In this document: positions 21,788-26,172 of the stretch, piece after piece
Layout of the letters: each line of letters starts with the position of its first letter
Numbering within the stretch: position 1 is the stretch's first letter
Source: Halobaculum sp. MBLA0143
GTDB lineage: Archaea > Halobacteriota > Halobacteria > Halobacteriales > Haloferacaceae
DNA: 64,000 bases
Direction: 5' to 3'
Assembly: GCF_041361465.1 (NCBI RefSeq)
Contig: NZ_JBGKAC010000001.1
Span: 2,728,001 to 2,792,000, forward strand
The notes under the pieces: generated by a model
Told to the model about the DNA's origin: nothing
Databases searched by the model: none
What the model saw: only the letters and a program-made list of their open reading frames with translations
Program-made: the position numbers and the translations under genes

Positions 21788-22717
21788 ATGGACCTGACGG
21801 ACGCGACCGTGCTCGTCACGGGTGCGGCGGGGCTGATCGGCTCACACCTCGCCGAGCGACTCGCCGCGGACAACGAGGTCGTCGCCGTCGACGACCTCTC
21901 GAAGGGGACCCGCGACCGGGTGCCGGACGGTGTGGAGTTCCGCCAGGCGGATCTGACTGACCGGGAGGCGACGGAGCGGGTCGTCACCGAAGACGTCGAC
22001 GTCGTCTTCCACCTGGCAGCGATCACGGACACGAACTTCGACGACGACCGCGTGTTGTTCGAGCAGAACACGTCGATGACACACAACGTCTTGGAGGCGG
22101 CCCGGGCGGCCGGCGTCTCGAAGTTCGCGTTCACCTCGTCGTCGACCGTCTACGGCGAGGCGCCGCGACCGACGCCGGAAGACTACGCCCCGTTGGAGCC
22201 GATCAGCGTGTACGGCTCCAGCAAACTCGCCGACGAGGGGCTCGTGTCGACGTTCGCACACAGCTACGGCGTCCAGTCGTGGGTGTTCCGGTTCGCCAAC
22301 ATCGTCGGGCCGCGCCAACGCGGCAACGTGATCCCCGACTTCGTCCAGAAGCTCCAGGAGGACCCGGAGACGCTCACTATCCTCGGGGACGGCCGGCAGG
22401 AGAAGTCGTACCTCTACGTCGAGGACTGCGTCGACGCGATGGTGCACGTCGTCGAGAACGCCGACCGGTCGTTGAACACGTACAACCTGGGCACCCGGAC
22501 GACCACCTCCGTCGACCGGATCGCCGACATCGTGAGCCAGGAGCTGGGCGTCGATCCGGAGTACGAGTACACCGGCGGCGACCGCGGCTGGACCGGGGAC
22601 GTGCCGCGCATGCGGCTGTCCGTCGAGAAGTTAGCTGCGCTGGGCTGGGACGCGCCCGGCACCAGCGACGACGCCGTGCGTCGGGCCGCCAGAGAGATCG
22701 TCGCGGAGCTGACGTAG
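21788..22717 (+). CDS. NAD-dependent epimerase/dehydratase (UDP-glucose 4-epimerase-like)
   Basis: 309 residues, extended SDR fold. Motifs: VLVTGAAGLIGSHLAERL (NAD site), VDVVFHLAAITDTNF, the catalytic triad Thr/Ser in FTSSSTVYGE and YGSSK for YxxxK, and FRFANIVGPRQRGNVIPDFV and GDGRQEKSYLYVEDCV in the substrate half. These are typical for UDP-sugar epimerases such as GalE-type proteins used in S-layer or cell-surface glycan synthesis. The exact sugar is not determinable. ATG start at 21788. Confidence 0.9.
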   Translation: MDLTDATVLVTGAAGLIGSHLAERLAADNEVVAVDDLSKGTRDRVPDGVEFRQADLTDREATERVVTEDVDVVFHLAAITDTNFDDDRVLFEQNTSMTHNVLEAARAAGVSKFAFTSSSTVYGEAPRPTPEDYAPLEPISVYGSSKLADEGLVSTFAHSYGVQSWVFRFANIVGPRQRGNVIPDFVQKLQEDPETLTILGDGRQEKSYLYVEDCVDAMVHVVENADRSLNTYNLGTRTTTSVDRIADIVSQELGVDPEYEYTGGDRGWTGDVPRMRLSVEKLAALGWDAPGTSDDAVRRAAREIVAELT

Positions 22718-22724
22718 CCGTCGC

Positions 22725-23057
22725 TCACGACACTGTCGCAGTCGTCGTGGCGTCGGCGTCGGCGTCGTTGGCGACGAGCTCGCCGCGGACGTGGTAGTCG
22801 CCGGCCGGTGGGTCGTCCCAGCCACCCTCGAACGTCGCCGTCTCGCCGGGTGCGAGGTCGACGCTCCCCAGCGCCTGGCCGAACATCCGGCCGTCGCTCC
22901 ACCGCCACGCCGTCTCGCCGTCGCGTTCCACGACGAACTCCGCACGCTGGGTGTCGGAGAACTGGAGCGACACCGGGCCGTCGCCGTCGTTCTCGACGGT
23001 CAGTTCACACACGAGTGTGCCGTCCGTCTCCGTGGCCGCCAGCGTCGCCGTCACCAT
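22725..23057 (-). CDS. BsuPI-like intracellular proteinase inhibitor domain protein
   Basis: 110 residues, a single beta-sandwich without signal peptide: LVCELTVENDGDGPVSLQFSDTQRAEFVVER, then TAWRWSDGRMFGQALGSVDLAPGETATFEGGWD and GDYHVRGELVAND. This order (neg strand, FSDTQ/SGQ-like turn, W-S-x-D/GRMF, LxPGE, W..) matches the Bacillus BsuPI-type proteinase inhibitor domain. In Bacillus BsuPI inhibits the intracellular subtilisin. Here the gene lies 55 bp downstream of a subtilase on the same strand, so inhibition of that protease is a strong inference from context, not proven. Confidence 0.75.
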   Translation of the reverse strand: MVTATLAATETDGTLVCELTVENDGDGPVSLQFSDTQRAEFVVERDGETAWRWSDGRMFGQALGSVDLAPGETATFEGGWDDPPAGDYHVRGELVANDADADATTTATVS

Positions 23058-23112
23058 ACCGAGCGTTCGACGCCGCCGAAGAAAAGTTCGTCGCCGAGCG
23101 ACGGAAACCGCG

Positions 23113-24297
23113 TCAGTTGTCGCTGGAGTCGAGTCCGGCGGCGGCGGCCACGTCGAGCAGTCCGCTGCCGGTCTCGTTGCTGGCGAGTCCGATGTCTTCC
23201 GCGCTGGAGGTGAGCGTGCTGCGGACGTCGGAGGCGGTCGCGCCGTTGGCCATCAGGACGCCGGCCGCGCCGGCGACGTGCGGACACGACATCGACGTGC
23301 CGGAGTACTCGGTGTAGCCGCCCGGAATCGTCGAGAGCACGCCGACACCCGGCGCGGCGATCTCCACTTCCGACCCCGTGGAAGAGAAGCTCGCCAGGCT
23401 GTCGGTGGAGTCCGTCGCGCCGACGGCCACGACCTCGCTGTAGGAGGCCGGGTAGCCGACACACTCCGTACACGGTCCGGAGTTGCCCGCGGACGCGACG
23501 AGGAACACGCCCTTGTCCGCCGCGAACTGGACGGCGTCCTTCAGCGCCGCCGAGCCGCTGGAGGCTCCGAGCGACATCGACGCCACGTCCCAACCCTTGT
23601 TGGCGACGTACTCGACGCCGGCCGCGATGTCCGAGAAGGAACCGGAGCCACACGTCTCCAACACCTTCACGGCGTGGAGCGTCGCCTCCGTGGCGACACC
23701 GACCACGCCCTCCGTGTTGGCGGCCGCGTCCGCCGTCCCGGCACAGTGGGTGCCGTGGTTGTTGTCGTCGTCCCAAGACTGCTTGCAGGTGTTGTCTGCC
23801 GGCTTCGCGCCGTACCGGCAGCCGCCCTTCGTCGAACAGGTCGTGAACGCCTTCCCCTCGCCGACGTTGGCTTGGAGGTCCGGGTGGTCAGAGTCGATAC
23901 CGGTGTCGAGGATCGCGACGTCGGCACCGCTGCCAGTGTCACCGTTGGCACGCGTCACGTCGGCGTCGACGCGGTCGATGCCGTACGGCTGGGTCTCCCC
24001 CAGCGCCTGCATCGTGCCGTTCTCCTCTACGTAGCGGACGTTCGGATTGTTGTCCAGCGCGTCCGCCGCCGCCCGTGGCATCCGTGCCGTCCCGGCGTCG
24101 AAGTCGAACTCCCGCACGACGTCGTCCGCCTTCCGTCGGAACGCGCGCGCCCCCGCGCTGTTGGCGAAGCCGACGTTCACCTCTACCTTCTCACCCGGGT
24201 GCGCCGACGCGAGTCCGGACACTCCGGCCGCCCCCGTCGCCGCTCCGATAGTCTTCAGTGCACCCCGTCTCGAGAGATCTGTGGGTTGGTCTGCCAT
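23113..24297 (-). CDS. Subtilisin-family (S8) serine protease, halolysin-like, Tat-exported
   Basis: 394 residues. Signal: twin-arginine motif LSRRGALKTIG with hydrophobic stretch ending at GLASAHP. An inhibitor-I9-like propeptide spans about 34–98. The catalytic core shows D131 (AILDTGID), H181 (NNHGTHCAG), N272 (SAGNSGP) and S335 (YSGTSMSCPH). Unusual for the family are eight cysteines (154, 160, 171, 185, 216, 276, 279, 338), three of them in a small loop after D131. Unlike many halolysins it lacks a long C-terminal extension and ends soon after the core. Secreted and folded by Tat, processed by itself. Followed by an inhibitor gene. Confidence 0.95.
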   Translation of the reverse strand: MADQPTDLSRRGALKTIGAATGAAGVSGLASAHPGEKVEVNVGFANSAGARAFRRKADDVVREFDFDAGTARMPRAAADALDNNPNVRYVEENGTMQALGETQPYGIDRVDADVTRANGDTGSGADVAILDTGIDSDHPDLQANVGEGKAFTTCSTKGGCRYGAKPADNTCKQSWDDDNNHGTHCAGTADAAANTEGVVGVATEATLHAVKVLETCGSGSFSDIAAGVEYVANKGWDVASMSLGASSGSAALKDAVQFAADKGVFLVASAGNSGPCTECVGYPASYSEVVAVGATDSTDSLASFSSTGSEVEIAAPGVGVLSTIPGGYTEYSGTSMSCPHVAGAAGVLMANGATASDVRSTLTSSAEDIGLASNETGSGLLDVAAAAGLDSSDN

Positions 24298-24461: not shown

Positions 24462-25289
24462 TCAGCCGGCCAGCCGGGTGAGCAGCCCCCACAGCCGGGT
24501 GCGGGCCCAGGCCGGGAGGAACCCCGACAGCGTCGCCGCCCGGGCGACCGGGCCGACCGGGTAGCGGGCCGCCGGGTCGGTGGAGACGGCCGCCTCGACG
24601 ATCTCGGCCGCGACCGCCTCCGGCGGGACGGCCAGTGGTCCGCCGCCGCTGACGGCGTCTAAGTCCTCGAACAGCCCGTAGACGCTCTCGTAGGCGTCCG
24701 TCCGGTCGAGGTCGTCCGCCTCGGCGCTCGCGCGGTCGTCGAACGCCGTCGCCACCGGCCCCGGCTCCACCTCGACCACGTCCACGCCGTCGTCGGCCAC
24801 CTCCGCCCGCAACGCCTCGCCGGTCGCCGACAGCGCCGCCTTCGAGCCGCTGTACACGCCGCCGCCGGGGAACGGCACCCGCGCGGCGACGCTCGTCACG
24901 TTCACCACGGTGCCGTCGCCACGGCGACGCATCTCCGGGAGCACCCGCCGCATCAGCCGGAGCGGCCCGTACACGTTCACGTCGTACTGCCTGACGACCC
25001 GCTCCGTCGGTACGTCCTCTACCGGTCCCAGCTGGGCGTAGCCCGCGTTGTTGACCAGACAGTCGACCCGCTCCGTCTCGTCGATCACCCGTTCGACGAC
25101 CCGCGCCACGTCGTCCGCGACGGTCACGTCCAGCTCGTCGACTCGACAGCCGTCGCGTCCCTGGAACTCCGCGAGGTCGTCCGTGTCACGCGCCGTCGCG
25201 TACACCGTCCACTCCTCGTCTAAGAACGCCTCGACGGTCGCGCGCCCGATCCCCGACGAACACCCAGTGACCAACGCCGTCCGTTCCAT
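24462..25289 (-). CDS. SDR family oxidoreductase
   Basis: 275 residues, classical SDR: ALVTGCSSGIGRATVEAFL near the N-terminus, CLVNNAGYAQLGPVED, catalytic Ser in NVTSVAARVPFPGGGVY followed by YSGSK, and a C-terminal membrane-leaning tail with Leu/Ala-rich stretches. The pattern with DVNVYGPLRLMRRVLPEMRRRG is that of the 17-beta-HSD/retinol-dehydrogenase-like cluster. Substrate unknown. It is on the minus strand upstream of the protease with about 165 bp between; that gap is AT-rich and probably holds the protease promoter. Confidence 0.9.
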   Translation of the reverse strand: MERTALVTGCSSGIGRATVEAFLDEEWTVYATARDTDDLAEFQGRDGCRVDELDVTVADDVARVVERVIDETERVDCLVNNAGYAQLGPVEDVPTERVVRQYDVNVYGPLRLMRRVLPEMRRRGDGTVVNVTSVAARVPFPGGGVYSGSKAALSATGEALRAEVADDGVDVVEVEPGPVATAFDDRASAEADDLDRTDAYESVYGLFEDLDAVSGGGPLAVPPEAVAAEIVEAAVSTDPAARYPVGPVARAATLSGFLPAWARTRLWGLLTRLAG

Positions 25290-25416: not shown

Positions 25417-26172
25417 ATGGCGGAAGATCAATCTGCCAACGAGACAGGACGGAGAGCAGTTCTGAGAACAGCCGGAGCCACAGGAGCAACGCTCTTGCTC
25501 CCATCTGTCGGAGCAGCAACTGGCTCCGGAGACACCAGAGGTCGTAGGGTGGACCGAACGGTCGTCGCGGAGACGCAGCAGAAGCTGCGTGTCAGAGTCG
25601 TTCTCAGGTACGACGCCGGGGAGGTGATCCGGAAGTCACTCTTCGATGTCGACAAGCGTGGCGGTAGTGTGACTATCGTCGACACTGCCGGGCCAGGTGA
25701 GGAACTGAGCAGTGTTGGGACAGACACGCACAAGAATTGGGTCGAGAAGTACGACGGGTGGTACGCAGACATCGGTGACTGTGGCGGCAAGATCGCCGAT
25801 AATCACTACGTAGCCAACTTGGCGATCGAGACCGGCGACTCTCTGGAGGAGCACGAGGGTCAGCTTGCAATGCTCATAGGAGGAGTCGCCGGGGCGGCAA
25901 TCGGAACACGTGGAGGACCGGCTGGTACCGTGGTTGGGGTCGCAGTCGGGTCTCTCGCTGGAATCGCAATCGACTCTGCGTTTCTCGAACACTTCGACCT
26001 GTCGGGACGAACCTTCACCTTCCAGTGTTGGGATGTCCACCCGACGGTCGAGGAGGTCCGGGTCGGAGCATTCCTGAGCTACGATCCGACAGCCGACGCA
26101 GGACGGTCGATATACAGGAAAGGGTTCCCAGGCCACCTAGGCGTAGGAGAAAAGATAGCTGATTACATCTGA
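25417..26172 (+). CDS. Tat-exported protein with glycine-zipper segment, unknown role
   Basis: 251 residues. Begins with a Tat signal (NETGRRAVLRTAGATGATLLL). The secreted part is predicted beta-rich at first (RVRVVLRYDAGEVIRK, GSVTIVDTAGPGEEL), then contains about 40 Gly/Ala-rich residues (LIGGVAGAAIGTRGG... TVVGVAVGSLAGIAI, about 150–190) with a glycine-zipper pattern, and ends with FTFQCWDVHPTVEEV and a short tail. Glycine zippers are seen in membrane-inserting and pore-forming proteins. Codon GC is lower than in the neighbourhood. The next gene starts 11 bp on. I cannot match it to a known family; a halocin-like toxin is one possibility. Confidence 0.6.
   Translation: MAEDQSANETGRRAVLRTAGATGATLLLPSVGAATGSGDTRGRRVDRTVVAETQQKLRVRVVLRYDAGEVIRKSLFDVDKRGGSVTIVDTAGPGEELSSVGTDTHKNWVEKYDGWYADIGDCGGKIADNHYVANLAIETGDSLEEHEGQLAMLIGGVAGAAIGTRGGPAGTVVGVAVGSLAGIAIDSAFLEHFDLSGRTFTFQCWDVHPTVEEVRVGAFLSYDPTADAGRSIYRKGFPGHLGVGEKIADYI

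What the first reader, a model, noticed from the sequence alone, without database searches (positions are those of the whole stretch)
22725..24297. Secreted subtilase paired with a BsuPI-like inhibitor
The protease gene is followed after 55 bp on the same strand by a small beta-sandwich protein resembling Bacillus BsuPI, which inhibits intracellular subtilisin. The inhibitor has no signal, so it could guard the cytosol against early-activated protease before Tat export. I know of no described haloarchaeal protease–inhibitor operon of this kind.
Basis: partly seen in the sequence, partly recalled or inferred. Interest (0 to 1): 0.65.

Follow-up and report, generated by a model that had tools for sequence, protein, structure and literature searches.

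The report
Protease and cytosolic inhibitor gene pair
A salt-loving archaeon carries, side by side, a gene for a protein-cutting enzyme that is exported already folded and a gene for a small protein that stays inside and probably keeps that enzyme switched off until it has left; the same arrangement recurs across many salt-loving archaea, although a 2013 survey reported that these two kinds of gene are never neighbours.

Summary
On the minus strand a 394-aa Tat-exported S8 subtilase (24297..23113) is followed after 55 bp by a 110-aa protein (23057..22725) that matches PF12690 BsuPI (E 3e-27). Its AlphaFold model matches Bacillus IPI (3ISY) at Z 16.4. The pair is conserved: 25 of 80 BsuPI loci sampled across Halobacteriales have same-strand subtilases nearby, 23 of them ending under 700 bp upstream, never on the opposite strand, in eight families and at least three genomic neighbourhoods. 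The only IPI-family survey I found (2013) says no sequenced species has the two genes close together. BsuPI-carrying genomes nearly always have subtilases (156/161, against 77/132 without BsuPI). Haloarchaeal BsuPI proteins start at the domain and lack a signal peptide; those of several bacteria are lipoproteins. Best reading: a cytosolic guard against subtilases that fold before Tat export, a danger shown experimentally for halolysin SptA. An intracellular subtilisin inhibitor (NSI) purified from Natrialba magadii had no known gene as of 2012; BsuPI is a candidate.

The parts
23113..24297 (-). S8 subtilase, 394 aa: Tat signal (SRRGALKTIGAATGAAG), N-terminal propeptide region (about residues 35-98), catalytic domain with D/H/S motifs, no C-terminal extension
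   Evidence: ORF; PF00082 6e-54; TAT_signal_seq above cut-off; aligned with subtilisin Carlsberg over residues 100-387
22725..23057 (-). BsuPI/IPI-family protein, 110 aa, starts at the domain, no signal peptide, acidic (22 D+E, 5 K+R)
   Evidence: PF12690 3.2e-27; phmmer to 3ISY 1e-6; AF2 model pLDDT 96.9; VIA Z 16.4, rmsd 1.7 over 110 residues to 3ISY
22866..22907 (-). codons for residues 51-64 of the BsuPI protein (WRWSDGRMFGQALG), which hold the proposed reactive loop; equivalent to residues 62-68 (KMFTQAF) of Bacillus IPI
   Evidence: alignment to 3ISY; W51, G56, F59 and Q61 are among the most conserved positions in 81 haloarchaeal sequences; the loop was assigned by docking in PMC3901451
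23058..23112 (-). 55-bp intergenic region
   Evidence: median spacing in other paired loci 64 bp
23078..23087 (-). AACTTTTCTT, TATA-like box at about -30 to -21 of the BsuPI ATG (own leaderless promoter, inferred)
   Evidence: AT-rich peak at -30..-26 in 26 paired and 54 unpaired loci; TTWW in -34..-22 in 16/26 and 27/54, against 0-4 at other positions
21788..22717 (+). NAD-dependent epimerase, the usual convergent right-hand neighbour of the locus; not part of the system
   Evidence: PF01370 2e-55; conserved synteny

Best explanation
The BsuPI protein is a cytosolic inhibitor of Tat-exported subtilases. Haloarchaeal subtilases fold inside the cell before export, where the propeptide can be auto-cleaved too early. 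The BsuPI protein would sit in the active-site cleft of any prematurely matured enzyme, through the conserved W-R-[WYF]-S-D-G-R-M-F-[AT]-Q loop, and block it reversibly. It stays behind when the protease is exported, so the secreted enzyme is free outside. Shown: the two genes, their families, their conserved order, the absence of a signal on the inhibitor, Tat motifs on the proteases, genome-wide co-occurrence. Shown elsewhere: the danger of intracellular activation (for SptA) and inhibition of subtilisins by the Bacillus family member. Inferred: that the haloarchaeal protein inhibits, that its target is the neighbouring protease, and the loop mechanism.
For: Family and fold. Conserved S8-then-BsuPI order on the same strand in 8 families, with arrays of up to several S8 genes upstream of one BsuPI gene. 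The pair recurs in different genomic neighbourhoods: the DUF2797/epimerase/Trm56/TFE locus, a MatE locus, and a third locus in family f12 whose BsuPI and S8 both group with f1 sequences. In the window genome DUF2797 lies 1 Mb away, yet the pair is intact. L048 and L098 have sister BsuPI proteins but non-sister S8 partners, as if the partner was replaced. The S8s most like the window's that lack a C-terminal extension lie in the BsuPI locus 86 times in 110, those with an extension 3 in 40. Co-occurrence: 156/161 against 77/132 genomes with S8; mean 4.8 against 1.2 S8 per genome. 57 of 58 adjacent S8s have an RR motif (this tally includes two bacterial rows). Haloarchaeal BsuPI proteins lack signals, whereas several bacterial ones and their two S8 neighbours look like lipoproteins, so the inhibitor's compartment goes with the place where the protease folds. 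The Tat-signal mutant of SptA gave intracellular active enzyme and cell death (PMC6085418). Bacillus IPI inhibits subtilisins with Ki about 1e-9 M (PMC3901451).
Against: No binding or inhibition data for any haloarchaeal member. Whether even Bacillus IPI is a true inhibitor or a competing substrate is disputed, and MEROPS dropped the family (PMC3901451). Most haloarchaeal BsuPI genes have no S8 neighbour. The within-genus test of co-occurrence is only suggestive (p 0.095), so part of the genome-wide signal may be phylogenetic. The window protein has G at position 60, where nearly all others have A or T. The subtilase already has its own propeptide. A structure prediction of protease and inhibitor together failed.
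Confidence: 0.66

Rival explanations
1. Folding or export companion: the BsuPI protein binds the propeptide-containing subtilase in the cytosol to help it fold or to hold it export-competent for Tat, and inhibition is incidental.
For: Same location, pairing and absence of signal as the favoured reading; the Ig-like fold is a general protein-binding fold and Rigden et al. raise non-inhibitory binding (PMC3901451); arrays of several S8s per BsuPI gene suit a shared companion.
Against: The loop proposed to enter the active site is among the most conserved parts. Subtilases have a propeptide chaperone of their own. Bacterial relatives are outside the cytosol, which does not suit an export companion.
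Confidence: 0.13
2. The BsuPI protein controls a different, intracellular protease or has a housekeeping role, and the S8 genes are neighbours by locus history only.
For: About 70% of sampled BsuPI genes have no S8 next to them and stay in the same housekeeping locus; the gene has its own promoter-like box; five BsuPI-carrying genomes had no S8 at E 1e-20.
Against: Pairing in several genomic neighbourhoods and 8 families, always same strand, with S8 upstream in all but one haloarchaeal case; S8s of several clades beside BsuPI, with at least 11 label changes forced by supported branches; strong genome co-occurrence; two independent bacterial pairs, in a Myxococcota MAG and in bacterium HR33.
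Confidence: 0.17
3. Self-protection against external protease: the secreted subtilases act on competing cells and the BsuPI protein is an immunity protein for enzyme that gets back in.
For: Halolysins take part in antagonism between haloarchaea by activating precursor peptides (PMC12893001); the arrangement effector then cytosolic partner resembles toxin-immunity pairs.
Against: Halolysin HlyR4 alone had no killing effect in that work; no sign that the subtilase enters cells.
Confidence: 0.04

Closest known systems
Bacillus subtilis Isp1 (IspA) and IPI (BsuPI, PDB 3ISY, formerly MEROPS I22)
   Same: Same inhibitor family (PF12690) and fold (Z 16.4); protease of the same family S8; inhibitor acting in the cytosol as first described.
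   Different: In Bacillus the protease is intracellular and the genes are not neighbours (PMC3901451). Here the protease is Tat-exported and the genes are adjacent. The Bacillus gene has an alternative start with a signal peptide; the window gene shows none within 40 codons upstream.
Halolysins (SptA, Nep, HlyR4)
   Same: Haloarchaeal Tat-exported S8 subtilases with propeptide.
   Different: Classical halolysins have a C-terminal extension; the window enzyme does not. The near relatives without extension are the ones found beside BsuPI (86/110 against 3/40).
NSI, intracellular subtilisin inhibitor of Natrialba magadii
   Same: Intracellular inhibitor of subtilisin in a haloarchaeon; related Natrialba species carry a BsuPI gene (L149, L153, L160).
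   Different: Gene of NSI had not been identified as of the 2012 genome paper (PMC3403918); the purification paper is not held here, so size and properties could not be compared.
Gemmatimonadota-like bacterium HR33 and a Myxococcota MAG, S8 plus BsuPI neighbours (L193, L191)
   Same: Same gene order, S8 then BsuPI.
   Different: BsuPI and S8 both look like Sec-exported lipoproteins, so the inhibitor is placed outside, where those proteases fold.

Membership tests
BsuPI / IPI family (PF12690) | Profile score above Pfam's gathering cut-off | tested here: met
   94.9 bits against 22.9, residues 3-97 to profile 2-99 of 101
BsuPI / IPI family (PF12690) | Ig-like beta sandwich like 3ISY | tested here: met
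   AF2 pLDDT 96.9; Foldseek best hit 3ISY, TM 0.86/0.81; VIA Z 16.4 with the next row at 9.5
BsuPI / IPI family (PF12690) | Conserved wedge loop (IPI 62-68) | tested here: met
   RMFGQAL aligns with KMFTQAF; Q61 kept in 73 of 81 haloarchaeal sequences, M in 8; position 60 is G in the window, an unusual letter
BsuPI / IPI family (PF12690) | Inhibits subtilisins | not testable with these tools
   Needs purified protein; even for Bacillus IPI debated (PMC3901451)
Peptidase family S8 (subtilase) | Profile match and D/H/S catalytic motifs | tested here: met
   PF00082 183.7 bits; motifs VAILDTGID, NNHGTHCAG and SGTSMSCPHVAG align with subtilisin Carlsberg
Halolysin (classical) | Tat signal and propeptide | tested here: met
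   TAT_signal_seq 18.3 bits against 16.7; region of about 60 residues between signal and catalytic domain. Pfam I9 was not hit, so the propeptide is by position and likeness
Halolysin (classical) | C-terminal extension after the catalytic domain | tested here: not met
   ORF ends at residue 394, catalytic alignment reaches 387
Operon (co-transcribed pair) | Single transcript with no promoter of its own for the second gene | tested here: inconclusive
   55-bp gap suits an operon, but a TATA-like box lies at about -28 of the second gene; no transcript data

The most novel reading that the evidence does not exclude
Haloarchaea widely use a dedicated cytosolic inhibitor, set beside or in trans to their subtilases, as a safety catch for proteases that must fold before Tat export; in BsuPI families the inhibitor is placed wherever its protease folds (cytosol for Tat, outside for Sec), and NSI of Natrialba magadii is a member.
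Probability: 0.5. Interest if true: 0.72.

Novelty: new variant of a known kind. Interest (0 to 1): 0.6.

Why it matters
It gives the disputed I22/BsuPI family what it lacked: a conserved genomic tie to subtilases, in two domains of life. It contradicts the only published survey of gene neighbourhoods for the family that I found. It offers a mechanism for a real problem, namely how a cell exports a folded, self-activating protease by Tat without digesting itself, and it proposes a gene for an archaeal subtilisin inhibitor (NSI) that had been purified without one. All three can be tested in Haloferax, whose species H. marinum carries the pair.

Tried and rejected
1) Natural S8-BsuPI fusion in the window genome (C2:52694, weak BsuPI match E 0.1 inside a 533-aa subtilase frame): the C-terminus reads like a PPC-type domain by eye, so not taken as a fusion. 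2) L171 looked like an in-frame fusion, but its subtilase lies in four broken frames in a MAG contig; not used. 3) Modelling protease and inhibitor as one read-through chain (Haloferax marinum L121, TGA read as W): the first alignment placed inhibitor rows on the protease; the second was aligned well but too shallow for the protease, and the model failed (pLDDT 63, pTM 0.50). By my criterion set beforehand it says nothing about binding. 6) AsaP1 prodomain as a related inhibitory prodomain (VIA Z 9.1, 26% identity): the profile match is weak (E 0.39) and tied with unrelated Ig domains; left as a lead. 7) Inverted repeats near the pair: one weak overlapping palindrome outside it. 8) NSI purification paper: not held.

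Full report
What is there. The minus strand of the window holds a 394-aa subtilase gene (24297..23113) and, 55 bp further on, a 110-aa gene (23057..22725). The first matches PF00082 with its catalytic motifs intact and carries a Tat signal above NCBIfam's cut-off. The second matches PF12690, Intracellular proteinase inhibitor, at 94.9 bits against a cut-off of 22.9. Its AlphaFold model (pLDDT 96.9) has Bacillus IPI, 3ISY, as its best match both by Foldseek and by VIA-align, with Z 16.4 and rmsd 1.7 over 110 residues, far above the next row at 9.5.

Is the pair conserved? PF12690 occurs in 161 of 293 Halobacteriales genomes, nearly always as a single gene. I fetched 80 of these loci, chosen by score and spread of genera rather than at random. 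In 25 a subtilase lies on the same strand within the fetched 10 kb, and in 23 of them it ends under 700 bp upstream of BsuPI. None is on the opposite strand. In one locus (L039) the subtilases are downstream. The paired loci come from eight family codes (f1, f4, f5, f6, f7, f8, f12, f17). With about 8 subtilases in 3600 genes, chance predicts about 0.1-0.2%; relatedness makes the formal p value meaningless, but not the spread over families. Named examples are Haloferax marinum, Haloprofundus, Halegenticoccus, Halobium, Halostella, Haloglomus, Halapricum, Halorussus and Haladaptatus, the last two with arrays of up to several tandem subtilases.

This bears directly on the literature. Rigden et al. 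2013 (PMC3901451) wrote that in none of the completely sequenced species is the IPI gene close to a subtilisin gene. With today's genomes that no longer holds. A full-text search for BsuPI found that paper and one unrelated one, and I found no later account of the pair; only open-licence papers were searched.

Locus history. The usual haloarchaeal locus reads DUF2797 (minus), [subtilases], BsuPI, epimerase (minus), Trm56, TFE, DUF2110. BsuPI keeps this place in many genomes without a subtilase, so the single pair can be read as subtilase loss or gain at a standing BsuPI gene. Three observations speak for a functional tie rather than mere synteny. First, pairs also sit in other neighbourhoods, with a MatE gene in f4 and f6 and in a third locus in f12, and the f12 BsuPI and subtilase both group with f1 sequences, as expected if they moved together. 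Second, L048 and L098 have sister BsuPI proteins but subtilases of different clades. Third, the subtilase tree needs at least 11 changes between 'beside BsuPI' and 'elsewhere' on supported branches. The BsuPI tree rests on 111 columns and is weakly resolved, and the subtilase tree is a FastTree. In the window genome DUF2797 has been moved 1 Mb away while the pair is intact.

Co-occurrence. Of the genomes with BsuPI, 156 of 161 have a strong S8; of those without, 77 of 132. Mean S8 counts, capped by the tool at about 7-8, are 4.8 and 1.2. Within genera holding both states the trend is the same but weak (permutation p 0.095), so shared ancestry explains part of it. Among the 150 listed subtilases most like the window's, those without a C-terminal extension are in the BsuPI locus in 86 of 110 cases, those with one in 3 of 40 (the frame length of 470 aa was my cut, and the two properties may be linked through relatedness).

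Location. In 81 haloarchaeal sequences BsuPI starts directly at the domain, with no hydrophobic N-terminus (median best 12-residue hydropathy 0.70). A few start codons were chosen by a simple rule and may be off by some residues. By contrast several bacterial BsuPI proteins have lipoprotein-like signals, and in the two bacterial pairs found, a Myxococcota MAG and bacterium HR33 (L191, L193), the subtilases look like lipoproteins as well. Adjacent haloarchaeal subtilases carry the twin-arginine motif (57 of 58 rows in the tally, which includes the two bacterial rows). Tat exports folded proteins and Sec unfolded ones (established knowledge), so the inhibitor seems to be placed where the protease folds. 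This rests on two bacterial pairs and on signal reading by eye and by hydropathy.

Mechanism. For halolysin SptA it has been shown that blocking the Tat signal leads to intracellular mature enzyme and cell death, and that the active enzyme accumulates in ageing cells (Du et al. 2015 as reported in PMC6085418). The need for a guard is therefore real. The loop that docking placed in the subtilisin cleft (IPI 62-68, KMFTQAF; PMC3901451) aligns with RMFGQAL in the window. In haloarchaea W51, G56, F59 and Q61 are among the most conserved positions, in paired and unpaired sequences alike. That suggests unpaired copies act in trans on subtilases elsewhere in the genome. Inhibition itself is not shown for any haloarchaeal protein, and even for Bacillus IPI it has been questioned.

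Operon or not. Upstream of BsuPI there is an AT-rich box at -30..-26 in both paired and unpaired loci (AT fraction 0.69 and 0.71 against about 0.35 around it). A TTWW element lies in -34..-22 in 16 of 26 paired and 27 of 54 unpaired loci, against 0-4 at other positions. This is where a haloarchaeal TATA box of a leaderless transcript is expected (established knowledge). The inhibitor can thus probably be made independently of the subtilase, which would suit a standing guard. Read-through from the subtilase is not excluded.

A lead. Natrialba magadii has a purified intracellular subtilisin inhibitor, NSI, whose gene was unknown when its genome was described (PMC3403918). Related Natrialba species carry BsuPI. 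My unverified memory is that NSI ran at about 35 kDa, which would not fit a 12-kDa protein unless it is oligomeric or runs oddly; the paper is not held.

What failed. A read-through chain of protease and inhibitor from Haloferax marinum was modelled to look for confident placement of the two domains; the protease itself was not modelled well (pTM 0.50), so there is no evidence either way. Other dead ends are listed under Tried and rejected.

Verdict. The guard hypothesis is the best-supported reading but rests on context, location and homology. It is a new variant of a known kind: the IPI-subtilisin theme, moved to proteases that fold inside and work outside.

Noticed in passing
window 23078-23087 and upstream of BsuPI in L033-L112: A TATA-like box at about -28 of the BsuPI ATG is shared by paired and unpaired loci, pointing to an own leaderless promoter.
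   Followed up: yes
L076, L085, L088, L091, L158, L170, L179, L180, L224-L228: Halorussus and Haladaptatus have arrays of several tandem Tat subtilases upstream of a single BsuPI gene; the subtilases are of several clades.
   Followed up: partly
window 24462-25289 and G000:C1:1721889: The DUF2797 gene that normally lies left of this locus is 1 Mb away in the window genome, and an SDR gene takes its place: a rearrangement just beyond the pair.
   Followed up: partly
L191, L193: Subtilase-BsuPI neighbours in a Myxococcota MAG and in bacterium HR33, both proteins with lipoprotein-like N-termini.
   Followed up: partly
model m368ecebe9a88 against PDB 2x3a/2x3b: The prodomain of the Aeromonas metallopeptidase AsaP1 resembles BsuPI in fold with 26-27% identity over about 105 residues, though tied in Z with unrelated Ig domains.
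   Followed up: partly
L071, L086, L093, L100, L121: A subgroup of BsuPI proteins has M instead of the conserved Q at position 61 (proposed P1), a possible change of target specificity.
   Followed up: no
window 25417-26172 (+): 251-aa ORF with a Tat-like N-terminus and a glycine-zipper-like stretch, no confident Pfam family.
   Followed up: no
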